This document shows, piece by piece, positions 13,051-27,004 of a stretch of DNA of 64,000 nt. Every line of letters begins with the position of its first letter. Positions within the stretch are counted from its first letter, which is position 1. The translations under genes and the position numbers were made by a program. This stretch comes from a virus. The notes under the pieces were generated by a model, which ran no database searches, was not told the origin of the DNA, and saw only the letters and a list, made by a program, of their open reading frames with translations. Location of the stretch: positions 1 through 64,000 of the IMG/VR virus record IMGVR_UViG_3300021142_000008; one strand, 5' to 3'.

Positions 13051-13134
13051 TTTCACACAACACATCTCGCATATCAGACGAACACAGCTACGCTGTTGAC
13101 GAACACGGAAACGTGTGCCATGTGACATGTGAAA
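13051..13134 (+). ncRNA. Candidate structured RNA
   Basis: Closing stem TTTCACA (13051-13057)/TGTGAAA (13128-13134). Inside are two hairpins, ACAGC-TAC-GCTGT and ACACG-GAAA-CGTGT (a GNRA tetraloop), each introduced by GACGAACAC, a direct repeat. No protein frame covers it convincingly. Confidence 0.48.
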
Positions 13135-13150
13135 TCTGTCTTCTGAAAAT

Positions 13151-13181
13151 ACATAACTCACTGAAAACCAAGGAGTTATGT
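13151..13181 (+). ncRNA. Long hairpin
   Basis: Perfect 9-bp stem ACATAACTC/GAGTTATGT with a 13-nt loop, 17 nt after the previous RNA and about 120 nt before the ParB-like gene. May belong to the same transcript or to the leader of that gene. Confidence 0.4.
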
Positions 13182-13303
13182 GTCTGTGAGAGGGTGGGAA
13201 ACAACACGTCCTCTGTTTCATCAACATATAAAAAGCCTAAGAAAAACCACAAAAAACGCGGATCAGTATAGCTATAACAATAACACATCAAAAAAAAAAG
13301 ACA

Positions 13304-14053
13304 ATGAACATTACAAACTTATTAGGTCAGATTTGTACATTAGGTACAAAAAGCAAACAAGGTTTTAGAATGCTAGAGGGTATTAACAGGAAGGTGATAC
13401 CCAGTCGTGTGACAATGCTAGCTCAATCTGTTGAACAAATGGGTATATGTAGACCTGTTATCGTGGCGCAGATAGACTTTCTTCCTATTCCAGGGCTATA
13501 TGTCATAGATGGTCAGCATCTGTTTCATGCGCTCTTAAGACTTGGTTGTGATATACCATATGTAAAGATGGAGATTAAAACTAAGGAACAACTTGTAGAG
13601 AACTTGGCGCTGTTAAACAATAGTTCTAAGTCTTGGACTCTTGTTGACTATGCCACTGTATGGGCGTATATCAATCCTGATTATAGTAAGCTACTAAAAT
13701 ATCATAGTATATATGATGTGGAGCTTAGTGTATTAGCTAATATACTAAACAGATCTCCAAGACTTTTTGTATTAGGGAGTGTGATAAAGAAAGGTACATT
13801 GGTTATTAAGAATGAGGCCGAGGCGCTTATGATTTTAGATTATCTGACAGATATACTAAGAATCATTCCTAAGAGAAACGTTCATCATGACAATCGTAAA
13901 ATAATTGAAGCCTATGTACAGTTTGTTATGACTAACATATCTACATACAATCATAAGAAGTTTACTAAGTATTTAACTAAGAACCTATCAAGGTTAGAGT
14001 TTGCTAATGTAGACGAAGAGGTTTATGTGGATTTCTTCTCTAAAGGATTATAA
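13304..14053 (+). CDS. ParB/Srx-like domain protein
   Basis: 249 aa. The N-terminal third resembles the ParB/sulfiredoxin fold: an early strand with VIPSRVTMLAQSVEQMG, then RPVIVAQ, and the signature-like VIDGQHLFHALLRLG (near residues 67-81) in place of GxxR. The middle contains SKSWTLVDYATVW, the usual next helix of ParB-like phage proteins. The C-terminus is helical and unassigned. Could bind DNA or act as a nucleotide-dependent regulator. Confidence 0.72.
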   Translation: MNITNLLGQICTLGTKSKQGFRMLEGINRKVIPSRVTMLAQSVEQMGICRPVIVAQIDFLPIPGLYVIDGQHLFHALLRLGCDIPYVKMEIKTKEQLVENLALLNNSSKSWTLVDYATVWAYINPDYSKLLKYHSIYDVELSVLANILNRSPRLFVLGSVIKKGTLVIKNEAEALMILDYLTDILRIIPKRNVHHDNRKIIEAYVQFVMTNISTYNHKKFTKYLTKNLSRLEFANVDEEVYVDFFSKGL

Positions 14054-14071
14054 CATCCGCGACAAAGGATA

Positions 14072-14195
14072 ACGAGCTTTTTGTGTATATCCCCGACTTG
14101 AGAAATCGGGAAGGGGATAATACCTAAACATAGCAAGAGGATGGGTTTGAGGAACCTGTCAAATCTAGAGACTTTAATAAGTCATCAAAGCTCGT
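14072..14195 (+). ncRNA. Candidate structured RNA, four-way junction
   Basis: Closing stem ACGAGCTTT (14072-14080)/AAAGCTCGT (14187-14195), 9 bp. Inner arms: TATCCCC/GGGGATA (7 bp), TTTGA/TCAAA, and GACTT-TAAT-AAGTC. The region 14054-14400 has no protein frame, so this RNA and the next one explain it. Confidence 0.55.
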
Positions 14196-14237
14196 GAAGT
14201 TCGAGTGTAAAAAGGTGTAATCCCTTCTATTTTTTCT

Positions 14238-14298
14238 CACGCATATCTATGTGTGGTTTAAAAGAGCGTGTGTAGGACCAGAGGTCACAAGCTACACA
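14238..14298 (+). ncRNA. Candidate structured RNA
   Basis: CACGC/GCGTG, and a long arm TGTGTAG/CTACACA enclosing GACC-AGA-GGTC. The first two helices share bases, so they may be alternative folds. A terminator follows at 14338. Confidence 0.42.
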
Positions 14299-14337
14299 AA
14301 GAATTTAAACAAAGTGTTCGATTATAGTGAGCATATA

Positions 14338-14363
14338 AGAGGGTGACTATTCCCTCTATTTTT
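14338..14363 (+). terminator. Rho-independent terminator
   Basis: AGAGGG-tgactatt-CCCTCT followed by ATTTTT. Ends the RNA block that begins after the ParB-like gene. Confidence 0.72.
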
Positions 14364-14400
14364 AACATTGTTTTTCATCACCAAAAAAATATATAACACA

Positions 14401-14547
14401 ATGAAAAAGTATTGGGTAATGTTAGGAGCTCAGGTATTTATTATCGGTTCCACAATGAATCTGTCTGCAGGAGAAAAACTCTTTGTAAAAGGAACAGAAG
14501 TAACTGTTGTAGAGAAAGTCTACGTACAGAAAAACCTATTTATTTAA
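14401..14547 (+). CDS. Small secreted or membrane protein
   Basis: 48 aa (MKKYWVMLGAQVFIIGSTMN). Basic start and hydrophobic residues 4-19 resemble a signal peptide or anchor, followed by a short beta-like segment. Leader ATATATAACACA-ATG. Function unknown. Confidence 0.55.
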   Translation: MKKYWVMLGAQVFIIGSTMNLSAGEKLFVKGTEVTVVEKVYVQKNLFI

Positions 14548-14548
14548 T

Positions 14549-14605
14549 GTATTCTTAGATGTGAGCCCTAACATAGACTATTTGTCTACAGGGCTTATGT
14601 CTTTG
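14549..14605 (+). terminator. Hairpin between small genes
   Basis: GAGCCCT/AGGGCTT stem with an inner TAGAC/GTCTA helix; only short T stretches follow. Terminator or processing hairpin. Confidence 0.5.
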
Positions 14606-14624
14606 ACTAAAAACACATCAGTTT

Positions 14625-14747
14625 ATGTGGGAAACATTGAAACAAGGGATTAAAAACAATCCTAAAGTCGCGGCAGCTGGTCTGTCATTAGTATTGACGC
14701 TAGTAGTCTTCTACTGGTTATTATGTAACTTCTTAATTATCGAGTAA
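14625..14747 (+). CDS. Small single-pass membrane protein
   Basis: 40 aa. Residues ~16-38 form one hydrophobic helix (AAAGLSLVLTLVVFYWLLCN). The stop overlaps the next start as TAATG, so translation is coupled to the following lipoprotein. Confidence 0.6.
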   Translation: MWETLKQGIKNNPKVAAAGLSLVLTLVVFYWLLCNFLIIE

Positions 14748-14896
14748 TGAAAAGAAACACAGCGTACAGTCTTTTGTACATATTAACATTATTGGTTGTA
14801 GCAGCTATTATGGCTAGCTGTAACCCAATGATATCCGGTAACACGGGTGGAAGAAATTGTGGAGTGTGGTTTCCAAAACACTTTCACAGAAGATAA
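14747..14896 (+). CDS. Small lipoprotein
   Basis: 49 aa. N-terminal signal with lipobox (LLVVAAIMASC), giving a mature peptide of about 25 residues with two more Cys/Trp-containing turns. Coupled to the membrane peptide before it. May act at the host envelope; inference. Confidence 0.62.
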   Translation: MKRNTAYSLLYILTLLVVAAIMASCNPMISGNTGGRNCGVWFPKHFHRR

Positions 14897-14906
14897 GCAT
14901 TCCTAA

Positions 14907-14952
14907 TAAGAACACGGGCCTGGATTTCTATCCTGGGCTCTTATCTTTTATT
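14907..14952 (+). terminator. Terminator hairpin
   Basis: CGGGCCTGGA pairs with TCCTGGGCTC (some wobble) and is followed by TTATCTTTTATTATT, directly after the lipoprotein gene. Confidence 0.6.
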
Positions 14953-14974
14953 ATTAACACAAAAAACAATAGCT

Positions 14975-15268
14975 ATGTTATTTAGCGTTTACCTGGCTAC
15001 TGAGCCTAATGCATTCAGTGAAACTGTTTGTCAACCGCGCGAGTTCGTAGGAACTGTAGAAGCGGAAACTGTAGGTGTGGCTTATCATAAGACACAAAAC
15101 CTTACAGAAACATGGAACAAAGAAAAACCATGTAGAAGTGTTTCAGTTGGTGACGTCTTAGTAGACGAAAAGTTCAACAAACTAATGGTTATAGGTGTAG
15201 GATTCAGAGATATAACAAGAGAAATATGTCCTGAAACGGACATCACAAGAGATAATATGGCTGGGTAG
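14975..15268 (+). CDS. Hypothetical protein
   Basis: 97 aa, beta-rich (MLFSVYLATEPNAFSETVCQ; later GDVLVDEKFNKLMVIGVGFR). Three to four cysteines. Typical A-rich leader. No domain recognised. Confidence 0.68.
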   Translation: MLFSVYLATEPNAFSETVCQPREFVGTVEAETVGVAYHKTQNLTETWNKEKPCRSVSVGDVLVDEKFNKLMVIGVGFRDITREICPETDITRDNMAG

Positions 15269-15339
15269 ACGACTGGACGTGGAGCGATTTCCCATAGTTA
15301 TTCCCTACCTGGCATATTTTTTAACAAGATTAATGGTGA

Positions 15340-15458
15340 GAAAACCCGGAAGCTTCGGCTGATGGGTTTCCCTAAGACAGCTCATATTTGAGCTCCTATC
15401 ATACTCAATATATAATATATCTATATACTAGTATGATTAGAGCTCATATTTGAGCTCT
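15340..15458 (+). repeat. Array of hairpins with a repeated palindrome
   Basis: AAACCC-GAAGCTTC-GGGTTT is followed by two copies of the palindrome AGCTCATATTTGAGCT (15379-15394 and 15441-15456). Between them a perfect 8-bp inverted repeat, ATCATACT (15398-15405)/AGTATGAT (15430-15437), encloses an AT-only loop. The array fills the gap before the tandem paralogues. Confidence 0.6.
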
Positions 15459-15493
15459 CTTAGTCTCATTATAGTCACAAAATGAGCTTTATT

Positions 15494-15859
15494 ATGAAAG
15501 CTGAAGAACTGGTAATAGGGAATAAGTATGTTCCTATAAAGAAGTCTATTGGTCAACCATTTATGAAAGAAGATGGTGCTTGGTATAAAGCTGTTGGCAA
15601 AGGTCAAAACTTTTTGTATTACCTTGGACCAACTAACGGTGGTAAAAAACATGTTTTTAGTCATGAACAACCGTTTAGTCTTGGTGGAAGAAAAATAGGA
15701 GAATGGTATAACCCTGAAGATGTGGTTGAATATCCTATTATTCACTCATATAAGCCCGATAGAGCCTTTTTAAAAGAAATCTGGAGTATATCTACAGATG
15801 AAGAGAAAAAAGAGCTAGAATCGAAGTTTCCTCATCTTATGTTAAACTACCTTATATGA
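15494..15859 (+). CDS. Tandem paralogue 1, unknown family
   Basis: 121 aa from MKAEELVIGNKYVPIKK; this start (rather than 15482) matches the start of the paralogue that follows. Shared pattern: VxGxKYVPxxKSxG, WxKAxxKGQxFLY, PEDxxxY, FLKEI, KFP near the end. The two genes overlap by ATGA. Function unknown. Confidence 0.72.
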   Translation: MKAEELVIGNKYVPIKKSIGQPFMKEDGAWYKAVGKGQNFLYYLGPTNGGKKHVFSHEQPFSLGGRKIGEWYNPEDVVEYPIIHSYKPDRAFLKEIWSISTDEEKKELESKFPHLMLNYLI

Positions 15860-16224
15860 AAGCACAAGACATAGTAGTGGGAGGAAAATATGTTCCTTTA
15901 CGTAAAAGTGTAGGAGATTCAGAGTTATATGTACATCCTATGGGTGAATGGGCTAAAGCTCAAGCTAAAGGACAACCGTTTCTTTACGCTATAACGAAGT
16001 ATTGGAATACACATACAAATAGTAATATTATAGTATTATCTGTTGAAAATCCAAAGATGGTAGATTACCCTATATCGGATGGTTATGCTCCAGAAGACTT
16101 AATACCTTATACAGAATATTACCCGGACGAAGTATTTCTAAAAGAGATATATGCTATAGTTGATGAGAATCAGCGTCAAGACATGGAGGAAAAGTTTCCT
16201 CTTATTTTTAAACAAACAATCTAA
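15856..16224 (+). CDS. Tandem paralogue 2, unknown family
   Basis: 122 aa (MKAQDIVVGGKYVPLRKSVG). Clearly homologous to 15494-15859 over its full length (KGQPFLY, YAPEDLIPY, VFLKEIYAI, KFPLIFK). Probably from a local duplication; the copies have diverged, so both are probably in use. Confidence 0.75.
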   Translation: MKAQDIVVGGKYVPLRKSVGDSELYVHPMGEWAKAQAKGQPFLYAITKYWNTHTNSNIIVLSVENPKMVDYPISDGYAPEDLIPYTEYYPDEVFLKEIYAIVDENQRQDMEEKFPLIFKQTI

Positions 16225-16245
16225 GTGGTTGTAAATCAACGAGTT

Positions 16246-16551
16246 ATGAATTGGAAACACACAGTGACAGGTAAAGTGATAGATGATTATGACTATCAAG
16301 AACTACCTGCTCAAGAGAAAAAGTATTATGTCAGAACAGCTAACTCTGTAACTGACGATGATGATGACGATCTTTCTATAGGAAACTTGTTTTCTGTAGA
16401 ACAAGATGATCTTCCGTCCTCGTTTACTGTCCCTGACAATGACGATCCACAAGATTCTTTCCAAGGATTTGGTGGTGGAAGTTCAGGTGGCGGTGGAGCT
16501 ACAGATTCATGGGATGATGATGACGATAGCTCTGATGATTCAGATGATTAA
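16246..16551 (+). CDS. Acidic low-complexity protein
   Basis: 101 aa from MNWKHTVTGKVIDDYDYQ; a GTG start at 16225 is also possible. Contains a run of six Asp in the middle, a Gly/Ser-rich linker and a terminal Asp/Ser tail (SWDDDDDSSDDSDD). Such tails occur in DNA-mimic and single-strand-binding proteins; no specific function can be assigned. Confidence 0.6.
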   Translation: MNWKHTVTGKVIDDYDYQELPAQEKKYYVRTANSVTDDDDDDLSIGNLFSVEQDDLPSSFTVPDNDDPQDSFQGFGGGSSGGGGATDSWDDDDDSSDDSDD

Positions 16552-16555
16552 ACTA

Positions 16556-16636
16556 TTTGGGGATTTAAAGGATAGAACCTTTTACAGGAAGTACAACTGA
16601 TGGATCACTGGCTATATAGCAAAGACCAACCCCAAA
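16556..16636 (+). ncRNA. Candidate structured RNA
   Basis: Closing stem TTTGGGG (16556-16562)/CCCCAAA (16630-16636). Inner arms AAAGG-ATAGAA-CCTTT and the palindrome GCTATATAGC. Starts 5 nt after a stop codon; no protein frame. Confidence 0.5.
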
Positions 16637-16641
16637 CCAAT

Positions 16642-16705
16642 TGTTAAGAAACACATTAGAGGTGATGTGGGCTGAAGATTTGGGAAAGTCTTTAGCTTCT
16701 TAACA
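16642..16705 (+). ncRNA. Candidate structured RNA, three-way junction
   Basis: Closing stem TGTTAAGAA/TTCTTAACA (9 bp, perfect). Two arms fill the inside: CACAT/ATGTG (loop 8) and GCTGAAGA/TCTTTAGC (8 bp with one G-T). Nearly all of the 64 nt is paired, which makes chance unlikely. Confidence 0.58.
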
Positions 16706-16736
16706 CAATAACATAACAAACAAAACAATAAACAAC

Positions 16737-17513
16737 ATGGTGTTAGGTAGTATAAACGAGATCGTAGTTGATCTTACAGAACCTATGGAGATAAAGATGC
16801 AGACGTTAACCTATAGACAAATAAACTTGTTTGCAGGACAAAACGGATCTGGTAAGAGTTTCTTACTTATTAAGGTTTTCTGTTTACAAACAGCGCTAGG
16901 TGTATATGCAGCTCTTCCTATTGATCAGGTTATTCCTGATGTGTTAAAGAGAAAAGTGGCCCAGGAAATCTGGGACGGGTCTTTTACAGACCAAAACTTA
17001 AATGGAACCATAGAAGGACGCTATGACCATGGGGTATCACTTAAAGTGACGTTTGTTAAGGGTGATGTAACTGATGTACAATATTCAGACCTAACAAAAA
17101 TAACAGCAGTGGCGCCTGTGATATACATGTCTTCTCATATGAGAACATTTGAGAGTATTAAGATGTATCTGAAGATGAGAAAGATATTTAAAGAGAGCTC
17201 ACAACCAACACATGAGTTTGGAGCTGATCTTGCTACTAAGCTTGTAAAGGATGGGTTCAAGCTTTATGATATATTGTGTATTGAGCGACTTATATCTAAG
17301 ATGCCAATATTAGATACTGTAGAGATATGTAAGACGTTATCTAACTTTGAACCTAATGATCAAGTGTTCAATGATATAGCTTCATTTGATGTCGACTACG
17401 ACAGATGTGATTTCTTGTATAGATCAAAAGCTACAGGTAATGCTGTATATCTTACAAGTCTTCCAAAAGGACATCAAAGCCTTATAAATATGGTTTTGTG
17501 TTCTATTCCTTAG
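16737..17513 (+). CDS. ABC/AAA-type ATPase fragment without Walker B
   Basis: 258 aa. Walker A is intact (AGQNGSGKSFLL, near residues 33-44), and the C-terminus holds an ABC-signature-like LPKGHQSLINM (near 241-251). The protein stops seven residues later, so the Walker B, D-loop and switch His normally found after the signature are missing. Either a non-catalytic nucleotide-binding protein, or the 3' part was lost. Confidence 0.7.
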   Translation: MVLGSINEIVVDLTEPMEIKMQTLTYRQINLFAGQNGSGKSFLLIKVFCLQTALGVYAALPIDQVIPDVLKRKVAQEIWDGSFTDQNLNGTIEGRYDHGVSLKVTFVKGDVTDVQYSDLTKITAVAPVIYMSSHMRTFESIKMYLKMRKIFKESSQPTHEFGADLATKLVKDGFKLYDILCIERLISKMPILDTVEICKTLSNFEPNDQVFNDIASFDVDYDRCDFLYRSKATGNAVYLTSLPKGHQSLINMVLCSIP

Positions 17514-17538
17514 TTTTTTCACGCTTAAAAATAATAAA

Positions 17539-17982
17539 ATGGCGAAGTTAACAAGAAGAGGTCAGAATGACTCTCAAACAGTAAACAATTTTACTTTAAA
17601 CCTTACAAAAGGTAATGACGCGATCAAAGGTGATCGTGCAAGAGTGGCGTGTTCTTCAGCTGAAAGATCACAAAGAAAAATCATCGATGAAATCATCGAC
17701 AGACAAGACAAGTTGTTGTTAGAAAGAGAGAACTTAAGTGATCTTTCTCCTCGTAACACTACAAGTCTTGTGTTTGCCGGTGGTAACTTTGATGGAGACA
17801 AATGGGCTAGACGTATGCAAGACATCGAGCTTCAGTTGGTAAACATTGAAGTGGAGCTTGAAGTGGCTGAAGGTCTTTATGAAAAGTGGTTTGCTCCAGT
17901 AGAAGCTCCAGCTCCTAAAGCTACTCGTTCTGGAAATGGTAAAAGAGCTACAGCTGCTGCAGCTCAAGAAGGAGGAGAGTAA
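17539..17982 (+). CDS. Hypothetical protein with coiled coil
   Basis: 147 aa. Helical and charged (residues ~45-115 with LERENLSDLS, then DIELQLVNIEVELEVAEGL), and an Ala/Pro/Lys-rich tail. Ends with GGE just before the next ATG. Unknown function. Confidence 0.7.
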   Translation: MAKLTRRGQNDSQTVNNFTLNLTKGNDAIKGDRARVACSSAERSQRKIIDEIIDRQDKLLLERENLSDLSPRNTTSLVFAGGNFDGDKWARRMQDIELQLVNIEVELEVAEGLYEKWFAPVEAPAPKATRSGNGKRATAAAAQEGGE

Positions 17983-17984
17983 TC

Positions 17985-19031
17985 ATGCGGATCTACATAA
18001 GTGGATCACAAGCAGGAGACGCATCTATTCCTAGAAAAGTGGGAAACTACTTATCCGAGAAATATGAAGATGGGGTGGAGATAATCTACCCTAAGCTTTC
18101 TTGGACAAATAAGTCTGAAGAAGAGATGTTAGCTTGTGATATATTAATTATTTGCCCACCTGACTCTACAAACTACAACGAAAATATAAACGTAGGAAAA
18201 GGTCAGTATGAGATGGTTAACAAGTTTTACGATAAGCCAAACTCGGCCGGTATATTTGTTATCAACCATCTTCAAGAAGAAGATGATGAGATTGATTACA
18301 TCGAAGCCACTGTTGTGGAGGAATACCCTAGTGGAAATATAACTTTTCAAAATAGTGCTGATCGTCCAAACTGGCAAAACAACTATGGTTGGATACATAC
18401 TAGTGATGAAGGAGCTGTGTCTTTAGATGAACTGATGGAAAAATCTGGTGTATCGTTTAAGAAACATGAAACTTTGTTTCAGATTGGTAAATGGTACCGT
18501 CATTTTGAAAATAAAAATATTTTCTTTAAGTATGAATCAATCAAAAAAACAACTGGTGGTATCAAGTATATTTACGCTAGTGAATTTATTTCATCTGATC
18601 GTGTTTACACTTCTACGGGCCGTGGTATGGGAACACTCGATAATTATAAAAGTAAGATCGTATTACTTCCTCAAAGTGAACTTGATAATTTTTTACCTAC
18701 AGATCATGAGGATAGAAAAACCCAATCTGTTACTATAGATTCTTGGTGTGTAAAAGTTACAAGAGAAAACTATGATGTAGTTAAAAAATGGTTAGGTAAT
18801 AATCATGTTTCTTTAGCTGCAAATGATACACAACCTGGACATATAGTGGGTATTACAAAAAAAGGTGATAAAACCTATTTTGGAACTCATTGTGCTAAAG
18901 AATATTTTTCTAAGATTATTTCTACAAAAGACTTTTATACGAAAATTGGACATGTTGAGAAATCAACCACACCAATAGCTCCGTCTTATAAACCAACAAT
19001 CCATCTAGCCTGTATAAGGCTTATTCGTTAA
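17985..19031 (+). CDS. Nucleoside deoxyribosyltransferase/SLOG-like N-terminal domain protein
   Basis: 348 aa. Residues 1-~75 look like a small Rossmann domain of the nucleoside 2-deoxyribosyltransferase/DUF4406 type: MRIYISGSQAGDA, then CDILIICPP and NVGKGQYEMV with a candidate catalytic Glu. The remaining ~220 residues contain two similar-looking beta segments (WYRHFENKNIFFKY and later WCVKVTRENYDVV) of unknown fold. Could act on nucleosides or on ADP-ribose-like ligands; inference. Confidence 0.62.
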   Translation: MRIYISGSQAGDASIPRKVGNYLSEKYEDGVEIIYPKLSWTNKSEEEMLACDILIICPPDSTNYNENINVGKGQYEMVNKFYDKPNSAGIFVINHLQEEDDEIDYIEATVVEEYPSGNITFQNSADRPNWQNNYGWIHTSDEGAVSLDELMEKSGVSFKKHETLFQIGKWYRHFENKNIFFKYESIKKTTGGIKYIYASEFISSDRVYTSTGRGMGTLDNYKSKIVLLPQSELDNFLPTDHEDRKTQSVTIDSWCVKVTRENYDVVKKWLGNNHVSLAANDTQPGHIVGITKKGDKTYFGTHCAKEYFSKIISTKDFYTKIGHVEKSTTPIAPSYKPTIHLACIRLIR

Positions 19032-19051
19032 TTATTAAAAATCTTTTAGTT

Positions 19052-19765
19052 ATGACAACTAAAAAAGTAAACAATGAGCTTGCTATAAGTCAACAAGACT
19101 TAAACGAAGAGGGTATAAAAACCCAGCTTAATCAAAATGACCTATTAGAGGTCTTAGTTACTGAGCGCTTAGACGCTATCGATGCTGAATGTGCAGCTAT
19201 CACGGCTGAATACATGGCTATCCGAGAACAAGCTATTGAACAAGAAAACTTGATGAAAGAACAAGTTAAAAAAGAAGCTATTAAAGCTTTAAAAAAGCTT
19301 GGTATTATCTTTGGCGAAGACCAGAAGTTAAACTTTTCTATATATGTTAAAGGTGATAAAGATCGTTATGATGTGTTCAACGTTTATAAAAAATCAATTA
19401 TTAAAGGTCATGATAATGTTTTTAGAGAACGTTACAATCACACAGAGGTGTTAAAAACCTCTGGTGTTATTACTGGATATGTACTTATTCAGGTAAAAGA
19501 TGTGTTAACTTCAGAAGTAACATCTACACACGAATACAAGGTTAATGTTTCGTTCACTTATAAGAACAAAAGTAAAGAGATTGTTGAACGTATAGGTAAA
19601 CATAATGATAATGTAGATGCTTACACTGAAAAGATGGCTGGTGTTAACATAAACTACAACTCTGTACTTAAGAATATGAGAGTTACGTTTAACAAAAAAC
19701 TTATAGCAACCGGGTCGCCTAATCTTCGTAAGAAGATATTAGAATGCTTTGGATTGTCTATCTAA
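19052..19765 (+). CDS. Hypothetical protein with N-terminal coiled coil
   Basis: 237 aa. A helical first part (ERLDAIDAECAAITAEYMAI) is followed by a beta-rich segment of about 130 residues (KLNFSIYVKGDKDRYDVFNV). Directly upstream of the tRNA-Thr. No family recognised. Confidence 0.7.
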   Translation: MTTKKVNNELAISQQDLNEEGIKTQLNQNDLLEVLVTERLDAIDAECAAITAEYMAIREQAIEQENLMKEQVKKEAIKALKKLGIIFGEDQKLNFSIYVKGDKDRYDVFNVYKKSIIKGHDNVFRERYNHTEVLKTSGVITGYVLIQVKDVLTSEVTSTHEYKVNVSFTYKNKSKEIVERIGKHNDNVDAYTEKMAGVNINYNSVLKNMRVTFNKKLIATGSPNLRKKILECFGLSI

Positions 19766-19771
19766 TAAGGT

Positions 19772-20089: not shown

Positions 20090-21232
20090 ATGGAGAACAT
20101 ATCTCTAAAAACAATACCGGACGATGTCCGAAACTTCCTTGACATGGAAGATGGTGTTCGTAAGAACATAAAGTATCGTAAAGATATGATAGGTATTTTG
20201 TGGCTTGACACAAATTTGTGTATAAAAGACGATGGTACCATTCATTATTCAGAGGTTACAAGAAATATTAGTAAAGCACAAAAGTATTATACCAAACAAG
20301 TGAAGAAAATAGGTTTCACTTTTACAACTAAGAAAAAACTTGAATTTTGGTTTAACACATCTGTCAATAGTTTTATAGCTGACGCTTCTACTATATTCAA
20401 AGCTTTAAAGATTGATTGGTGGACGAATGAATATTCTCAGTTTTTGACAAAAGGTCTTATGGAAAAAGTGATAGCTGGTAAAATAACAAACCCTACAGAT
20501 TTTGCTCGGGCTGTTCTTAAACTCTACAGAGTTAAGAACGGGTCACATAAACTTCTGTTGAAAGCTATACCTATACATGATTTTACCAAACGTAAAATGT
20601 TACGAGGTCTTCAAGTATCTAAAAACTTTAATCACTATTTAGAGTTTTTCTTAGCAAAAGAGCTTGATCAGGAAAAAAGAAACATTTGGTCGATTCTACA
20701 AGACATGGAAGAACAAGCATTACAGCTTGAATGTAAGATAGACTATACGTGGAGTATTAAACGTATTCACAATGAACATACTAAGATGACCATGGAAATC
20801 ATGAACTATCTTGGTCAAGAACTTAGTGATACACCTTTAGAACATCTGCTTGAGCTGAAAGAAGCTATACCTGTTCTTCCTAATATGAGACTACTTGTAT
20901 CAGAAAAAGAAGCGTTTATAGAAGGATTCACAATGAATCATTGTGTATACACTAACTACTGGCATCGTGTTGTAGATCGTCAATACCTCATCTTTCATAT
21001 AAAAATGAATGATGTTGACTGGACGTTAGGTCTTAATCTTGTACAAGGTCTTAAATATGGATTGTATTGGAATCAGCTATATGGTTATAAGAACGCCTGG
21101 CCGCCAGATGACGTATCTAACACTATAAGAAAGTGGTTTGATGATATAAGAGATGATAAAAAGATTAAGCAGGTATGTAAGAAGCTGGCTCATATTGATA
21201 CAAACTCTTATGTAGCATTGGATGACATTTAA
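20090..21232 (+). CDS. PcfJ-like protein
   Basis: 380 aa starting MENISLKTIPDDV; a start at 20039 would extend into the preceding RNA region. The C-terminal third follows the PcfJ pattern: FIEGFTMNHCVYTNYWHRVV, then a beta strand pair and QLYGYKNAWP. PcfJ-like proteins are common on plasmids and phages and have no settled biochemical role. The N-terminal two thirds are helical and lysine-rich. Confidence 0.75.
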   Translation: MENISLKTIPDDVRNFLDMEDGVRKNIKYRKDMIGILWLDTNLCIKDDGTIHYSEVTRNISKAQKYYTKQVKKIGFTFTTKKKLEFWFNTSVNSFIADASTIFKALKIDWWTNEYSQFLTKGLMEKVIAGKITNPTDFARAVLKLYRVKNGSHKLLLKAIPIHDFTKRKMLRGLQVSKNFNHYLEFFLAKELDQEKRNIWSILQDMEEQALQLECKIDYTWSIKRIHNEHTKMTMEIMNYLGQELSDTPLEHLLELKEAIPVLPNMRLLVSEKEAFIEGFTMNHCVYTNYWHRVVDRQYLIFHIKMNDVDWTLGLNLVQGLKYGLYWNQLYGYKNAWPPDDVSNTIRKWFDDIRDDKKIKQVCKKLAHIDTNSYVALDDI

Positions 21233-21241
21233 ACAAAGTAT

Positions 21242-21370
21242 ATGGAAAACGAACCAACTCCTGTAGAGGAGGTCGATGGTAAAAAACTTTACATCATCGA
21301 AGATTATAAAATATGGGCCGAGAACTATACACAAGCTCTCGAACTATTAGCTATGATAAAAGCATTTTAG
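21242..21370 (+). CDS. Small acidic protein
   Basis: 42 aa (MENEPTPVEEVDGKKLYIIE), ending in a short helix (ALELLAMIKAF). Seven nt after the PcfJ-like gene stop, one nt before the next start. Unknown. Confidence 0.55.
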   Translation: MENEPTPVEEVDGKKLYIIEDYKIWAENYTQALELLAMIKAF

Positions 21371-21371
21371 T

Positions 21372-21551
21372 ATGAAAAATATTTTTAAAAAGAAAACAAC
21401 ACCCAAACAAGAAAGCTGTTTACCAAAGCCGGGAGACATTAGAATACAATCTAGTGTTTTTCCGGCTAAACAGCCAGATTACAATCAATGGGTGGCGTCT
21501 GTTGGATTTGGCTCAGCCTATCCTAGGACAAAGACAAAAATCATTTATTAA
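21372..21551 (+). CDS. Small basic protein
   Basis: 59 aa (MKNIFKKKTTPKQESCLPKP). Basic, proline-containing, no membrane segment. Follows the 42-aa gene by one base, so they are likely co-translated. Unknown. Confidence 0.55.
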   Translation: MKNIFKKKTTPKQESCLPKPGDIRIQSSVFPAKQPDYNQWVASVGFGSAYPRTKTKIIY

Positions 21552-21576
21552 AAGATTGCTTTGAGAAATCAGAGTA

Positions 21577-21734
21577 ACGTACAGATGTTGTATGAGCGCG
21601 GGAGTGATCAACCCATACATCTATTGTGGTAATCCACACCTGGTAGGAAGTTAAAAATCCTCTTATGAGTCAGTATTGTAGGTGATTGTATGTAGGCTTA
21701 CGAGTGCTATGTATAACCACCAAATCTTCTACAA
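21577..21734 (+). ncRNA. Candidate structured RNA
   Basis: AGATG-(TTG bulge)-TATG pairs with CATA-CATCT (21583-21622); TGTGG-TAAT-CCACA follows; then AGGA/TCCT and TTGTAG (21676-21681)/CTACAA (21729-21734). The 240-nt gap holds no protein frame and ends in a clear terminator, which supports a stand-alone transcript. Confidence 0.5.
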
Positions 21735-21766
21735 CAACAGGTAGGTAAAACCTGTTATTTTTTTCT
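21735..21766 (+). terminator. Rho-independent terminator
   Basis: AACAGG/CCTGTT, loop of nine, followed by ATTTTTTT. Ends the RNA at 21577-21734. Confidence 0.8.
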
Positions 21767-21794
21767 CATTATTTAAAAACAAAAAAAAAGGTTT

Positions 21795-22430
21795 ATGAAC
21801 CAAAATTATTTAGTCACTTGTGACGCAGACCACAACGCTAAGTACATGAACGATTGTTTCAGTGTTTCACCAGCGATGTCTCAAAAGTTAAGACACATGA
21901 TTTTCTTTGTGTTTGTTAGTAATCATATGAAATCTGAAGAACTCTATGATGATAGAGATTTAGCGCCACGCGAGCTAACCACTGTAACAGGTGATCTTGT
22001 TCAGTTTCTTAAGATGACAGAAACCCAACAAGAATATGAGTGGGGGTTGTTAAACTTTATGCATCTACATGAGATGGCTCAAGCTGCTTATGGGAAGTAT
22101 AAGATAAACACTAACGACTTAAACTCTTTTGATCCTGAAGAAAGAGATAGGGTTAAAAAGATCCGTGCTATGGATAAGTTCAAAGATATGTTGGAAGAAC
22201 TTCGTGATAGTTTTCATGATAAAGAAAATGATGATTATGATGTAGAACCTGAAGATGAAGGTGCTATCAGCATGAAGTTTATGACTAACAAGTGTGTACC
22301 ATATGTAAAAAAGAGTAAATATCACTTTCCTACGTATTACAAGATGGCCACAGGTAAAACTTTAGCTTCAGAACAAGGTTTTCTTGATGATGTATTAAGC
22401 ATCGCGAACACTCCTGATCCTGATTTGTAA
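21795..22430 (+). CDS. Hypothetical protein
   Basis: 211 aa. Largely helical with an acidic patch (KENDDYDVEPEDEGAISM). Clean A-rich leader (AAAAACAAAAAAAAAGG) before ATG. No domain recognised. Confidence 0.7.
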   Translation: MNQNYLVTCDADHNAKYMNDCFSVSPAMSQKLRHMIFFVFVSNHMKSEELYDDRDLAPRELTTVTGDLVQFLKMTETQQEYEWGLLNFMHLHEMAQAAYGKYKINTNDLNSFDPEERDRVKKIRAMDKFKDMLEELRDSFHDKENDDYDVEPEDEGAISMKFMTNKCVPYVKKSKYHFPTYYKMATGKTLASEQGFLDDVLSIANTPDPDL

Positions 22431-22440
22431 GATATATTCC

Positions 22441-22448
22441 TATATTTG
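22441..22448 (+). promoter_or_regulatory. Bacteroidota-type -7 promoter box
   Basis: TATATTTG, 26 nt before the ATG at 22474; no clean -33 TTTG at the standard distance. Likely promoter of the helix-turn-helix gene and the RNAs after it. Confidence 0.5.
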
Positions 22449-22473
22449 CGTCACAAAACACACACACAAATGC

Positions 22474-22761
22474 ATGAGATATCACAATCCGCGTCTAGAC
22501 AAAGGGTTTGGACAAGTTAGCAACGTTGCTATGAGAGATCCTGAGCTTTCTTTAAAAGAAAAAGCTCTTTACGCTTATCTTTCTACATACGTTGATAACA
22601 ATACAAACGAAACAACGGTGGCTGTATCTCGTATGGCTGATGAGTGTGGAGTTTCAGAAGCAACGATAAAGAGATCTTTAAGTATTCTGGAAGAAAAAGG
22701 ATATATCAGTAGACAGTTTCGTAAATACGGAACAAGTAGAACTACTGTATTACTAAAATAA
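22474..22761 (+). CDS. Winged-helix DNA-binding protein
   Basis: 95 aa. Clear helix-turn-helix: ALYAYLSTYVDN, then SRMADECGVSEATIKRSLSI and the wing EKGYISRQFRKYG. This is the pattern of replication-initiator/DnaD-type helix-turn-helix proteins. Has its own promoter. Likely a regulator or initiator accessory protein. Confidence 0.8.
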   Translation: MRYHNPRLDKGFGQVSNVAMRDPELSLKEKALYAYLSTYVDNNTNETTVAVSRMADECGVSEATIKRSLSILEEKGYISRQFRKYGTSRTTVLLK

Positions 22762-22770
22762 CTATTGTTT

Positions 22771-22841
22771 CAGGGCGATGGTGGCGGCTTACAGTTGTAG
22801 GTTTTTTAACGCTATTAACCCAGCCGAGTCATCGCGCCCTG
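22771..22841 (+). ncRNA. Candidate structured RNA
   Basis: Closing stem CAGGGCG (22771-22777)/CGCCCTG (22835-22841), extended by ATG/CAT across a CG bulge. Inner CGGC/GCCG and GGTT/AACC helices. Begins 9 nt after the helix-turn-helix gene stop. Confidence 0.52.
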
Positions 22842-22856
22842 GAACTAAATCATTAA

Positions 22857-22950
22857 AGTCTCAGAAAAGAGAGGTGCTGGATCTTTGGTTTGGGGAATCC
22901 TTTCGCTCAAGCTAGCGGAATAGGCGCTCTCCCCTCTGAGACTATTTTTA
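22857..22950 (+). ncRNA. Candidate structured RNA with terminator-like end
   Basis: Closing stem AGTCTCAGA (22857-22865)/TCTGAGACT (22935-22943), 9 bp, followed by ATTTTTATT. Inside: GAGAG/CTCTC, then arms GGAT/ATCC and CGCT-CAAGCT-AGCG. A compact three-arm RNA with its own 3' end. Confidence 0.55.
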
Positions 22951-22975
22951 TTCATTAACAAAACAATGTCGAGAC

Positions 22976-23167
22976 ATGAACAAGTCAACGAAGCATTTTA
23001 ATGGGACGCCTCAAGCGAGGGTTAGAAGAACAAACGCTATGCAGCGTTTAGAAGTTCAACTGAAAAGTGGGATAAAGAACTATGGTGGTAATCCTACAGA
23101 ACCACTTACTGATGATGACGTTAAACGTATCAACAAAGAGATTGAAATCATTAAAACACGTATATAA
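22976..23167 (+). CDS. Small basic protein
   Basis: 63 aa (MNKSTKHFNGTPQARVRRTN). Basic N-terminus and helical C-terminus. Followed after one base by the AT-hook-like gene, so the two are probably co-translated. Unknown. Confidence 0.6.
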   Translation: MNKSTKHFNGTPQARVRRTNAMQRLEVQLKSGIKNYGGNPTEPLTDDDVKRINKEIEIIKTRI

Positions 23168-23168
23168 C

Positions 23169-23552
23169 ATGGCAAAGATTACGCCTTCAAAAAGAAAAGG
23201 TCCGGGTAGACCTGCAGGTTCTAAAAACAGAACTACACCCATCGTAAAAGCTAAGAACGTAAAGAAAGACGATTCTAAAGCTGAAAAAGCAAAAACTGTC
23301 AAAGAAAAGTTTGAAAAGCTTATAATGGCTGAGCTTGAAACTAAGATGAACGAAGTGCTTGTTTCTTTTGCGAAAGAGACAACAAGTATTAGTTCTTTCT
23401 GTAAGAAAGCAGCTCAATATCATCTTAAGAAAGTGAAAGAAACAACCGGTGAAATCACTGAAGAAGATATCACTTATGTTCTTAATTTGGGACACAGAAT
23501 GATAAAACATCACTGTGATCAAGCTGAAGTAGAAGTTGTTAAAAAACAATAA
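23169..23552 (+). CDS. Small protein with AT-hook-like motif
   Basis: 127 aa from MAKITPSKRKGPGRPAGSKN. KRKGPGRPAGSK is an AT-hook-like minor-groove motif; the rest is a Lys-rich helix followed by a helical C-terminal domain. Likely binds DNA. Its stop codon touches the next RNA stem. Confidence 0.68.
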   Translation: MAKITPSKRKGPGRPAGSKNRTTPIVKAKNVKKDDSKAEKAKTVKEKFEKLIMAELETKMNEVLVSFAKETTSISSFCKKAAQYHLKKVKETTGEITEEDITYVLNLGHRMIKHHCDQAEVEVVKKQ

Positions 23553-23654
23553 CACGTTTGATAAAGACAGAAATGGGGATAAAATCGCTCCTTCCGTAAA
23601 GGATTCCAACGGACGCAGAGTCTTTGCGGAATCCCGTAGCCGAGTTCAACGTGT
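23552..23654 (+). ncRNA. Candidate structured RNA, domain 1
   Basis: Closing stem ACACGTT (23552-23558)/AACGTGT (23648-23654) and a central arm GGATTCC (23601-23607)/GGAATCC (23628-23634) with a further GCA/TGC at its tip. Confidence 0.5.
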
Positions 23655-23796
23655 GTGTATCCTTGGGCAGGAACCTATATGGAGTATGCAGTTAGGGAAA
23701 GGAGGATAAACAATGGGCTTAGATCGCGATTAGGAATATTATTCCGAAAGTGATATACACATTTTCCTGTACTCCACAAGGATACACTTTTTTTTA
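23655..23796 (+). ncRNA. Candidate structured RNA with pseudoknot and terminator
   Basis: Closing stem GTGTATCCTT (23655-23664)/AAGGATACAC (23778-23787), 10 bp, directly followed by nine T, so it doubles as an intrinsic terminator. Inside, CAGGAA (23668-23673) pairs with TTCCTG (23764-23769), and GGAGTA (23681-23686) pairs with TACTCC (23770-23775): these helices cross, giving a pseudoknot. A further hairpin GGAAT-ATT-ATTCC lies between. Confidence 0.6.
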
Positions 23797-23803
23797 AATT
23801 ATT

Positions 23804-23925
23804 GATTGATCAGGAGAACTATTCTGGAAAGAAACAAGTAGAAAGCGTTGGGTTGTGGAATGGCTAAAGCAACTTTAGGACGTTTTCTAAGTGTAGACAT
23901 CTAGTTGAACACTTCTGATAATCAC
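23804..23925 (+). ncRNA. Candidate structured RNA
   Basis: Outer pairing TGATTgATCAG with CTGATaATCA, inner AGTGT/ACACT and GTTG/CAAC. Located between the terminator at 23796 and the next gene at 23938; may be a 5' leader rather than a separate RNA. Confidence 0.4.
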
Positions 23926-23937
23926 AAAACAAAAAAC

Positions 23938-24156
23938 ATGAGTCAAAAGAAATTTTTCCTTCACATTGAAGCTGTAGAAGCTGAAGAAGGTAAAGCAACT
24001 GGTCTCGTTCAAGCTGAGGTAGATGCTCCAGCAGAGATGATGATCCAAGTATTAGCGGATATCTTTACAAAGAATCCTCCGTTATTAATCATGTTTAAAG
24101 CTGCTATAGCTTACATGGAGTTGAAAGATGAAGACGAAGACGATTCTGAGGAATAA
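23938..24156 (+). CDS. Small acidic protein
   Basis: 72 aa from MSQKKFFLHIEAVEAEEGKA. Short helical core and acidic tail (ELKDEDEDDSEE). The start follows an A-rich leader (ACAAAACAAAAAAC). Unknown. Confidence 0.65.
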   Translation: MSQKKFFLHIEAVEAEEGKATGLVQAEVDAPAEMMIQVLADIFTKNPPLLIMFKAAIAYMELKDEDEDDSEE

Positions 24157-24164
24157 AAAACAAC

Positions 24165-24310
24165 AACATTTGATCCCAGGTGCCGTGTCGTATTAATAAG
24201 ATGTCACAGCGGGTGAGTTAGTACCCGAAAAGATGGAGAGAAACCACTGAGTAAGCGAATCCTACAAGATTGAATTCTGACTTAGAAACATAATCCCTGG
24301 GGTAAATGTT
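24165..24310 (+). ncRNA. Candidate structured RNA, cloverleaf-like
   Basis: Long closing helix: AACATTT (24165-24171)/AAATGTT (24304-24310) plus CCCAGG/CCTGGG. Inside are CGGGT-(8)-ACCCG and CTGAGT/ACTTAG with AATC/GATT at its tip, plus a weak GTG/CAC arm. No tRNA T-loop is present. The 3' end abuts a promoter (24312) for the next gene. Confidence 0.58.
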
Positions 24311-24311
24311 G

Positions 24312-24319
24312 TATATTTG
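24312..24319 (+). promoter_or_regulatory. Bacteroidota-type -7 promoter box
   Basis: TATATTTG 24 nt before ATG at 24343, immediately after a structured RNA. No clear -33 match. Confidence 0.5.
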
Positions 24320-24342
24320 TAAACTTTTAAAGTACAGAAAGT

Positions 24343-24672
24343 ATGGCTTCAAAAACTTATCACATAGGTGATAGAGAAGAAAAACTAGATCATGACTATA
24401 CGATAGTTGTGACTGAGAATGATAATAACACCACGTATGTTTTATCCAGAAGTGAAAGCTCACACTGGAGTGAACATGCGCGTGGTGAAGAACTTCTCAC
24501 TCTTGTAGATGATGGAAATGGCTACAAGTTTAAAGAAAAGATCGGTAGGGCAGTGGATTACGCTCAGTTCGCTGAGTTGTATATTCTTATACAGTTTATC
24601 AATAAGATGTATAGTAACAAACCTGTCTATATCGGAACCATTTCCGAAACAACCTTCATTACGGATTTTTAA
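24343..24672 (+). CDS. Hypothetical protein
   Basis: 109 aa, beta-rich N-terminal half (DHDYTIVVTENDNNTTYVLS) and a helical C-terminal half. First gene of a unit that continues into the membrane-protein cluster. Unknown. Confidence 0.68.
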   Translation: MASKTYHIGDREEKLDHDYTIVVTENDNNTTYVLSRSESSHWSEHARGEELLTLVDDGNGYKFKEKIGRAVDYAQFAELYILIQFINKMYSNKPVYIGTISETTFITDF

Positions 24673-24681
24673 AACACATAT

Positions 24682-24939
24682 ATGAAGAATTATCTTTACT
24701 GGCTCGGAAGAGTCTTTGAGCTGGGCTTATTAGCTGTGCTCACATTGTTAGTAATTAAAGCTGGCTTTGGCTTTATGAGTAAGAAAGACACGTTATTGAA
24801 CATAGCGGGTACTTTTATTGTTCTGTTTGGTTGTTTATCAAGTGGTTTTTACGCTTGGTGGGTGGCACATAGAATACTTATTCGTATAGAAAAAAGCGAA
24901 AAAGAGGAAGAAGGAGGACCTGATAAATCATGTTTGTAA
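24682..24939 (+). CDS. Two-pass membrane protein
   Basis: 85 aa. Hydrophobic helices at about residues 12-30 and 38-62, with a charged C-terminus (RIEKSEKEEEGGPDKS). Overlaps the next membrane gene by 10 nt. Part of a four-gene envelope cluster around an SPFH protein. Confidence 0.7.
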   Translation: MKNYLYWLGRVFELGLLAVLTLLVIKAGFGFMSKKDTLLNIAGTFIVLFGCLSSGFYAWWVAHRILIRIEKSEKEEEGGPDKSCL

Positions 24940-25184
24940 TCCTTTACCTTATTATATCAGCCATGTTTTTAGGAATATCTATCACTGTGTTAAAACATAA
25001 CATAGACAATGATAAATATTTTTATGAAGATAGTTGGGGTTCTTTTAAGAAAGATGGTCTTGATTATCAAATACGTTGGTACGTTGTGATATGTTTAGTA
25101 TTACTAGTATTAGCATGGCCTTTCTTCATTCCTTGTTATTTATTTTATCTTTTTGGAGCTAAGCTGGCCAAGAAGTTTTTATAA
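24930..25184 (+). CDS. Two-pass membrane protein
   Basis: 84 aa. Hydrophobic helices at the N-terminus (LYLIISAMFLGISITVL) and near residues 52-75 (YVVICLVLLVLAWPFFIPC). Same envelope cluster. Confidence 0.7.
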   Translation: MFVILYLIISAMFLGISITVLKHNIDNDKYFYEDSWGSFKKDGLDYQIRWYVVICLVLLVLAWPFFIPCYLFYLFGAKLAKKFL

Positions 25185-25230
25185 AAAAAGAAGCTTAATT
25201 ATTTATTAATCATCAAAAACAAAACAAAAG

Positions 25231-26094
25231 ATGAAAAAGTTTGGATCGTTATTAGTGTTAATCGCTGTTATATTTACAGCTTGTACAAATGTTGGACCTA
25301 CAGAAGTTGGGTTCATGATCAGTAATTCAGGAAACTATCGTGGTATCGACAGTCTTCCTACCGTTAGTGGCTGGAATTTTTACACTCCAGGGTTTAACCA
25401 CATAGTGACTATGCCTACAACACAACAGCATGTTGTTTGGAGTGAAGGAGCTGGTGAAGGTGAAGCTGAAGGACAGCACATCACTGTAGCTTGTTCTGGT
25501 GGCGCGGGCTTTAAGATGGACGTAGGTCTTAACTATAGACTTAATCCATTCAAAGCTTCTAAAGTTTATCTTAAGTATAAAACAGATGATTTAGAAAAGA
25601 TAACTGAAGGATATTTACGTAATGTTGTTAGAGGAAGTATGCAGGACATATCTGGTCATATAACAGTGGATAGTATATTAACAAATCTACCTGGATATGA
25701 ACAAGCTGTAAGAGATCTTGTTGGTAAACGTTTTGAATCTGAAGGATTTATATTAGATAACTTTAGTATTCTTAAACAACCTACACCTACAGATCCTGAT
25801 CTGGCTAAAATGATTGGTGAAAAGATCAAAGCTAAACAAGATGCTGAAAAGAGTGTTACCGAGTTACAGAAGAGTGTAGCGGAAGCTAATAAAAAGATAG
25901 CTGATGCAAGAGGTGACTCTGCTTCAAGAGTTATTAGAGCTCAGTCTGAAGCTAAAGAAATCTTAGTGAAGCAAGAAGCTTTAAGACAATCACCACAGTA
26001 TGTAGAACTTGTTAAAGCGCAACGCTGGGATGGACATTTGAGTGCTGTACAAGGAGGTGGATCTGGTATGATACTTCAACTTAAACAACCTTAA
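25231..26094 (+). CDS. SPFH/prohibitin-like lipoprotein
   Basis: 287 aa. Signal peptide with lipobox (LLVLIAVIFTAC, Cys near residue 18), then an SPFH (Band 7) domain: GPTEVGFMISN, GWNFYTPGFN, beta strands with MDVGLNYRLNP, and a helical stretch (KIKAKQDAEKSVTELQKSV) rich in Ala/Lys/Glu, as in prohibitin coiled coils. SPFH proteins form membrane-bound ring scaffolds. Its neighbours are small membrane proteins. Possible roles are envelope protection or modulation of host membrane proteases; inference. Confidence 0.78.
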   Translation: MKKFGSLLVLIAVIFTACTNVGPTEVGFMISNSGNYRGIDSLPTVSGWNFYTPGFNHIVTMPTTQQHVVWSEGAGEGEAEGQHITVACSGGAGFKMDVGLNYRLNPFKASKVYLKYKTDDLEKITEGYLRNVVRGSMQDISGHITVDSILTNLPGYEQAVRDLVGKRFESEGFILDNFSILKQPTPTDPDLAKMIGEKIKAKQDAEKSVTELQKSVAEANKKIADARGDSASRVIRAQSEAKEILVKQEALRQSPQYVELVKAQRWDGHLSAVQGGGSGMILQLKQP

Positions 26095-26096
26095 TC

Positions 26097-26372
26097 ATGG
26101 GAGTAGCAGCGTTTATTATTACAGTCATCCTGGTTCTTGGATTCTTATGGAAAGTATATAAGACACCAACCTGGAGAAAAAAGTTTGTAGAAAATCTTGA
26201 AGAGTTTGATGCTCCTCTTGGAGCTATTGTAGTTCTAATAGGTATTATATATGCTTTAGTACTTCTTACATTATTTTTCCCTGTGTTTATGATTTCTTTA
26301 TTTATCCTCGCATTTGTTGGAGGATATATGGGGTATAAGATTCATAAGAAACACGAAGAAGAAAATAATTAA
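26097..26372 (+). CDS. Two- to three-pass membrane protein
   Basis: 91 aa. Hydrophobic helices at residues 4-20 and in the second half (LGAIVVLIGIIYALVLLTLF, followed by a third segment). Two nt after the SPFH gene, so coupled to it; followed by a terminator. Confidence 0.72.
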   Translation: MGVAAFIITVILVLGFLWKVYKTPTWRKKFVENLEEFDAPLGAIVVLIGIIYALVLLTLFFPVFMISLFILAFVGGYMGYKIHKKHEEENN

Positions 26373-26375
26373 TCA

Positions 26376-26403
26376 AAACCTGGGCTAAAATCCGGGTTTT
26401 ACA
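26376..26403 (+). terminator. Terminator hairpin
   Basis: AAAACCtGG / CCgGGTTTT around GCTAAAAT, just after the SPFH cluster. The T-run is the 3' arm itself. Confidence 0.6.
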
Positions 26404-26415
26404 ATCTATAAAAAG

Positions 26416-26649
26416 ATGTTCCAACCAAAGAAATCAAAGATTGAACACTTAAACGAGCGTTCAGAGAACGTTATCAATGTGTTCACCGAGACAGTTAATA
26501 GTTTAAAAACTATCAACGAAGAAATTGACAGCCATAAAGCTGAAAAGCTCGCTGAAAAAGCTAAGCTTGAATCTCATATAGAAACTCTGGAAGAAAGATC
26601 TAAGGCTAATACCCTTGTGATAAACAACATCCAGAAGATATTTTCGTAA
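26416..26649 (+). CDS. Small coiled-coil protein
   Basis: 77 aa. Almost entirely a charged coiled coil (EEIDSHKAEKLAEKAKLESH). Unknown. Confidence 0.65.
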   Translation: MFQPKKSKIEHLNERSENVINVFTETVNSLKTINEEIDSHKAEKLAEKAKLESHIETLEERSKANTLVINNIQKIFS

Positions 26650-26653
26650 GAAT

Positions 26654-26713
26654 AAGAACACGTTAATACCGAATTAACTAAAAGGGCGGGAGAGTGATCT
26701 CTCGTTCTTTTCT
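26654..26713 (+). ncRNA. Candidate small structured RNA
   Basis: Closing stem AAGAAC (26654-26659)/GTTCTT (26704-26709), with two hairpins GTTAAT/ATTAAC and GAGAG-TGAT-CTCTC; TTTT follows. Starts 4 nt after a stop codon. Confidence 0.5.
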
Positions 26714-26937
26714 ATTTTCCCTGCTGATAAGCAAACAGATGATAACAAATGTTAAACGATGGATAGTAGATAAGTGCCCCATCATCTATTTATATAGAAA
26801 ATGCTGAACAGGATTACTAGAATCTACATCAAGAGTAGAGCTGTTTATAGTGGACAGATGTGGTTAAGGCTACTCTTATGGAGTGACGGATGAAATATCT
26901 CCCCACACATTCAGAATCTTGAACTGACAGGGAAAAT
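26714..26937 (+). ncRNA. Large candidate structured RNA
   Basis: Perfect 10-bp closing stem ATTTTCCCTG (26714-26723)/CAGGGAAAAT (26928-26937). Inner elements: GAGTAG/CTACTC with CTGT/ACAG inside, GGAG/CTCC, and possibly crossing helices near 26758-26788 (GATGG/CCATC with TAGAT/ATCTA). At 224 nt it is the largest of the folded RNAs in this region. Confidence 0.55.
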
Positions 26938-26950
26938 TTCTTAAGGGAAA

Positions 26951-27004
26951 TTAAGGTGGAGATGGATCCATCAGTTGTCTAAAGTTCTCATTAAGACACC
27001 CTTA
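26951..27004 (+). ncRNA. Candidate small structured RNA
   Basis: TAAGG-TG pairs with CA-CCTTA (one bulge), enclosing GATGgatcCATC and a TGTCT/AGACA helix. Followed 35 nt later by the initiator-like tRNA. Confidence 0.42.

What the first reader, a model, noticed from the sequence alone, without database searches (positions are those of the whole stretch)
13051..27004. A chain of about fifteen folded non-coding RNAs between small early genes
Seen: almost every gap in this stretch (13051, 14072, 14238, 16556, 16642, 21577, 22771, 22857, 23552, 23655, 23804, 24165, 26654, 26714, 26951) is closed by a 6-13 bp terminal stem with two or more inner arms. Several end in a U-run, and some are tightly bounded by stop codon and promoter. 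Such consistent closing stems are not expected from spacer DNA, and the other blocks of the phage have almost no spacers. Inference: a set of phage small RNAs acting in defence evasion, host control or virion function.
Basis: partly seen in the sequence, partly recalled or inferred. Interest (0 to 1): 0.82.

Follow-up and report, generated by a model that had tools for sequence, protein, structure and literature searches.

The report
Phage small RNAs sharing one handle
Between the genes of this virus of (probably) Bacteroidota bacteria lies a set of folded RNAs that match no known RNA family; at least one, and probably three, carry a base-paired handle that evolution has preserved in about 30 related viruses, which points to an unrecognised RNA system whose job is unknown.

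Summary
The observation largely holds. Whole gaps in this stretch fold better than shuffled sequence (mean z -3.25, 17 of 21 below -2; coding controls -0.97, 9 of 60). Some listed positions fail (23552, 26951), several are terminator-like hairpins, and "two or more inner arms" is often untrue. Relatives prove one element and unify others. Window 24166-24309 belongs to a new RNA family ("class A") found in about 30 related Crassvirales-like contigs, nearly always downstream of an HTH gene. Covariation is decisive (97.5% of cells paired, 32-50% when slid), and a model built without the window or its nearest relative finds it as top hit (E=7e-7). Its base is a long helix with a bulged G (U[G]AU / RUR). 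Four otherwise unlike RNA classes in relatives carry that handle; the window has two more copies, 23803-23924 (probable) and 26721-26853 (possible). 22857 and 23655 have structural homologues in one relative lineage. No Rfam match; relatives' RNA clusters match no annotated phage. Best reading: small RNAs cut from polycistronic transcripts, held by one protein through the common handle, with variable heads acting in trans. Function unknown; defence evasion is one unproven option.

The parts
24163..24312 (+). Class A RNA: handle helix with bulged G (U[G]AU/RUR), Q helix, bulged A, R helix, loop-E-like AGUA/GAA internal loop, variable head
   Evidence: Leave-out covariance model from other phages finds 24166-24309 as top hit in the window, E 7.1e-7; covariation 97.5% of cells paired against 32-50% slid; RNAalifold recovers the same helix
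23803..23924 (+). Probable second handle RNA (class A paralogue)
   Evidence: Same handle by unbiased bulge scan; fold z -4.8; only weak model score, E 0.14
26721..26853 (+). Possible third handle RNA
   Evidence: Handle found by bulge scan, but the gap as a whole does not fold better than shuffles
22857..22945 (+). Structured RNA element, long rod
   Evidence: z -3.5; same place, same topology (7-bp stem, bulged G, 3-bp stem, 4-nt loop) and replaced pairs in relative L131
23655..23793 (+). Structured RNA element with core GAUUAGGAAU..AUUCCGAAA
   Evidence: z -3.4; homologue in L006/L132 by sequence with a wholly replaced closing stem
22767..22845 (+). Structured element directly after the HTH gene
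   Evidence: z -3.8; structured gap at the same place in L131, homology not proven
22474..22761 (+). HTH_36 protein gene, conserved neighbour of the RNA cluster
   Evidence: Pfam PF13730 E 2.3e-11; 45 related loci
22441..22448 (+). TAnnTTTG promoter-like box ahead of the HTH gene and RNA cluster; another at 24312 just after class A
   Evidence: Pattern scan; promoter activity not tested
13051..13220 (+). Structured gap, unconfirmed by comparison
   Evidence: z -2.1 trimmed, -4.8 whole gap; only a weak 41-nt match elsewhere
14072..14300 (+). Structured gap with 9-bp closing stem at 14072 and hairpins at 14238; unconfirmed by comparison
   Evidence: z -5.3 and -2.7; no homologue found
16556..16702 (+). 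Two structured segments (16556 weak, 16642 strong); unconfirmed by comparison
   Evidence: z -1.95 and -5.1; no homologue found
26654..26712 (+). Terminator-like hairpin followed by U-rich sequence
   Evidence: z -4.5, single 14-bp hairpin

Best explanation
The stretch carries a cluster of small structured RNAs within polycistronic transcripts of a Crassvirales-like phage. The best-defined ones share a handle: two stacked helices separated by one bulged G in the context U[G]AU / RUR. Shown: conserved structure of class A and class C, the same handle in four RNA classes, position after the HTH gene, variable heads, reuse of a 35-nt head module. Inferred: the RNAs are cut out of the longer transcript, one handle-binding protein holds them, and the fast-changing head acts in trans on a host or phage target, as a decoy or by base pairing. 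The existence of the conserved RNAs is near certain (0.95); the number given is for the whole trans-acting mechanism.
For: Class A in 33 listed sequences; covariation 97.5% of cells paired, 97 double changes against 31 in shuffles; RNAalifold: 14 of 18 pairs with compensatory change; held-out model finds the window copy at E 7e-7 and unseen loci at the same gene position. Class C in 21 loci with its own covariation. Unbiased scan: of 40 long helices with a single-base 5' bulge (A- and G-register readings of the same helix counted once), 38 are U[G]A(U/C) opposite RUR. First downstream ORF in 15 clusters, against cis control. In five genomes class A begins within about 4 nt of the HTH stop codon, so it must be cut out there to act alone. 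Head module recurs in RNAs of different background.
Against: No transcript data: processing, a handle-binding protein and a target are all unproven. Heads show little detectable common structure. The HTH gene is a constant upstream neighbour, which a 3'-UTR role would also give; but the loci were collected through that gene, so this constancy is partly by construction. The protein at 21795, a candidate partner, is missing near several class A loci. P and Q pairing was demanded by my descriptor.
Confidence: 0.55

Rival explanations
1. The elements act in cis: processing, stability or translation-insulating structures in untranslated parts of a polycistronic mRNA, class A being a 3'-UTR element of the HTH gene, perhaps bound by the HTH protein as autoregulation.
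For: Class A abuts the HTH stop codon in five genomes and lies downstream of it in nearly all. Promoter boxes are found ahead of the HTH gene and again just after class A in the window.
Against: Other classes and even genes lie between HTH and class A in many genomes (up to 1.4 kb in the window). Several RNA classes in a row without genes between them are more than a UTR needs.
Confidence: 0.25
2. The structured gaps are ordinary: intrinsic terminators, tRNA remnants and spacer hairpins.
For: Some gaps are terminator-like (26654; the U-run at 21758) and the region holds tRNA genes.
Against: Class A and C have long-range closing helices of 100-224 and 55-77 nt with covariation and mostly no tight hairpin plus U-run architecture; no tRNA family match on them.
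Confidence: 0.08
3. The RNAs are self-cleaving or self-splicing elements, or parts of a mobile RNA element.
For: Group I introns are present in this phage; a head module recurs; a tRNA-like gene carries an insert.
Against: Class A occurs mostly once per locus at one fixed place, not scattered; no known ribozyme family in Rfam matches.
Confidence: 0.07

Closest known systems
GOLLD and ROOL RNAs (phage and prophage RNAs, PMC12286853)
   Same: Structured phage RNAs of unknown function, often near tRNA islands.
   Different: GOLLD and ROOL are single large RNAs (many GOLLD members exceed 800 nt); here several small classes of about 55-224 nt share a handle. No Rfam match to either family.
Y RNAs bound by Ro (TROVE) proteins (from general knowledge)
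   Same: Works like: a conserved bulged helix at the base binds the protein while the rest varies.
   Different: The bulge motif differs and no Ro/TROVE domain turned up among the window proteins scanned. A resemblance only.
Phage T4 RNAs C and D (stable RNAs of its tRNA cluster; from general knowledge)
   Same: Small stable phage RNAs of unknown role cut from a longer transcript that holds tRNAs.
   Different: No sequence relation shown; not compared directly here.

Membership tests
Any Rfam 15 family | Score above the family's gathering threshold | tested here: not met
   Only tRNA and group I intron reach threshold in the window; permissive search of 13000-29000 gives nothing credible on these elements; L103 and L105 nothing at E<=1
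GOLLD / ROOL | Match to the family covariance model and large ornate size | tested here: not met
   Both are Rfam families and neither was reported; class A is only 104-224 nt
tRNA or tRNA remnant | Cloverleaf match to RF00005 or ARAGORN call | tested here: not met
   tRNA hits lie elsewhere; class A and C architecture differs
Intrinsic terminator | Short GC-rich hairpin directly followed by a U-run | tested here: inconclusive
   Fits 26654 and the U-run at 21758; does not fit 24166-24309, whose closing arms are about 110 nt apart, although some class A copies in relatives are followed by U-runs
Trans-acting small RNA | Discrete stable transcript | not testable with these tools
   Needs RNA from infected cells
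Trans-acting small RNA | No constant downstream gene (cis target) | tested here: met
   First downstream ORF of class A falls into 15 clusters over 32 loci

The most novel reading that the evidence does not exclude
These phages run a handle-based RNA platform: several unrelated small RNA families share one protein-binding handle (bulged-G U[G]AU/RUR) and carry exchangeable heads, so that new effector RNAs arise by head swapping.
Probability: 0.35. Interest if true: 0.88.

Novelty: new variant of a known kind. Interest (0 to 1): 0.72.

Why it matters
Phage non-coding RNAs are poorly known, and none of the papers found with the searches made here describes such a set for crAss-like phages. A conserved handle shared by several RNA classes predicts a common binding protein, which makes the question directly testable by pull-down. 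If the heads act on host targets, this would be a modular RNA counterpart of the small-protein arsenals of phages.

Tried and rejected
Single-protein searches of IMG/VR with window proteins 13304 and 21795 found nothing; the SPFH-like protein and the terminase opened the family. DNA searches of annotated phages found nothing. The class A pattern in bacterial genomes gave 25 hits, fewer than my rough chance estimate of 60, and the model confirms none. Structure prediction plus fold search for two conserved neighbour proteins gave no PDB match. The 23655 core matched L096 weakly by BLAST, but the stretch there looked coding-like and lacks the core, so it was dropped. ARAGORN did not call the tmRNA even with the intron cut out in silico; Rfam called the intact homologue in the relative. 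A window hit at 14412-14580 with the class A model (E 0.011) covers a small gene and its handle pairs are partly broken; treated as chance. tRNA remnants were rejected for classes A and C.

Full report
Context. The window is 64 kb of a 128.7-kb virus record. Its terminase matches crAss-like and other Bacteroidota phages only distantly (about 25% identity), so I call it Crassvirales-like. TAnnTTTG promoter boxes in several gaps fit a Bacteroidota host, by general knowledge of that promoter type. No annotated phage is close at DNA level.

The observation. Trimmed segments and whole gaps were folded against dinucleotide shuffles. As a set the gaps are more structured than coding stretches of the same genome. 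Individually 23552 and 26951 fail, 21577 and 26714 are not significant, and some hits are terminator-like.

Relatives. The SPFH-like protein at 25231 led to G001 (IMGVR_UViG_3300032329_000471), whose terminase is 83-85% identical. Gene order is shared. After the HTH gene at 22474 both genomes carry structured gaps in the same order. At 24165 the closing stem AACAUUUGAUCCCAGG/CCCUGGGGUAAAUGUU of the window stands against ACGUUUGAUCUUGAG/CUCAAGAUAAACGU in G001, with many paired changes. The 95-aa HTH protein then retrieved 45 loci, most with the same RNA downstream.

Class A. The 33 listed sequences (32 loci, the window giving two) share a P helix, a bulged G between U and A-U (the alternative register bulges the A), a Q helix, a bulged A followed by G-C, an R helix, and in many of them AGUA opposite GAA, the signature of a loop-E/sarcin-ricin type internal loop (by general knowledge; not modelled). 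RNAalifold recovers the helix without being told. Pair counting with shuffled and slid controls is decisive. A model trained on ten sequences from other phages ranks 24166-24309 first in the window at E 7e-7. My descriptor demanded P and Q pairing, so their perfection is partly by construction; the R helix, the invariant linkers and the held-out hits do not depend on it. Several contigs are near copies, so the number of independent lineages is lower than 32.

The shared handle. A second class, C, of about 55-77 nt sits just upstream of class A in 21 loci and has its own covariation. Two further classes (D, for example L146 6384-6519; H, for example L140 4511-4588) were seen by eye and by scan. 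When 20 RNA clusters were scanned for any long helix with a single-base 5' bulge, whatever the base, practically all had U[G]A(U/C) opposite RUR. Four classes without other clear resemblance share that element, which is best explained by a common ligand, most likely a protein. In the window the same kind of scan, with slightly looser limits, gives 23803-23924, 24163-24312 and 26721-26853 with this handle, beside chance helices of other kinds; the last is the weakest, with ordinary folding energy.

Cis or trans. The first gene after class A falls into 15 clusters, so control of the next gene is unlikely. The HTH gene upstream is constant, though the loci were collected through it; in five genomes the helix starts within about 4 nt of its stop codon (one overlaps it), so there class A is part of the HTH mRNA until cut. 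A 35-nt head module recurs in class A RNAs of different background. I conclude, as inference, that the RNAs are processed units with a conserved base and variable head acting in trans (0.55), with a 3'-UTR role as main rival (0.25). Which target they have cannot be told from sequence.

Other window elements. 22857-22945 and 23655-23793 have homologues in the G001 lineage with replaced base pairs, so they are likely real RNAs, supported by two lineages only. 22771 has a structured counterpart in the same place but no proven homology. 13051, 14072, 16556 and 16642 have no convincing structured homologue in the loci searched (13051 has only a weak 41-nt match) and rest on folding energy alone.

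Known or new. No Rfam family matches; no annotated phage record matches the RNA clusters of two relatives; the literature searches found no description, within the limits of an open-access library without preprints. GOLLD and ROOL are the nearest in kind (PMC12286853), not in structure. I file it as a new variant of a known kind, phage structured RNAs of unknown function, with the shared handle as its new feature.

Noticed in passing
window 27888-28656: A phage tmRNA gene whose T-loop is split by a group I intron (28381-28639; exons ...CGGGUU | CGACUCCCG). The relative G001 has an uninterrupted homologue called as tmRNA by Rfam (L006 5658-6103 minus, E 3e-26); intron call RF00028. Readable tags GAKIINMAFAGRRVMAAA (window) and GAKIINMAFANARVAVAA (G001). 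T-loop introns in tmRNA are a known kind (PMC11915505).
   Followed up: partly
window 27691-27818 and 19857-20006; L006 about 6230-6113 (minus strand); L155 after 6486: tRNA-like genes with an inserted structured segment around the D or anticodon arm; default ARAGORN misses them, and with introns allowed it calls only the first (tRNA-Leu with a 35-nt insert). The others were seen by eye.
   Followed up: no
window 15370-15465: Near-palindromic element with GAGCTCATATTTGAGCTC arms, matched on one or both strands in several relatives; the whole gap has the strongest fold of all (z -6.3). Perhaps a bidirectional terminator, operator or origin.
   Followed up: no
window 27006 and 27190; L006 about 6606-6577 (minus strand): Conserved leader TTAGGTTTGGCYCACTTGTACCTT ahead of tRNA genes, 93% identical over 30 nt to the relative; contains a TAnnTTTG box, so it may be the tRNA promoter.
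   Followed up: no
window 41281-41548: A second group I intron (RF00028, E 3.7e-14), just after or overlapping the end of a gene for a GIY-YIG domain protein (40597-41517).
   Followed up: no
window 21795-22430 and 30000-30539: Two proteins of unknown function conserved around the RNA cluster in relatives; confident AlphaFold models without a significant PDB match. Candidates for RNA partners.
   Followed up: partly
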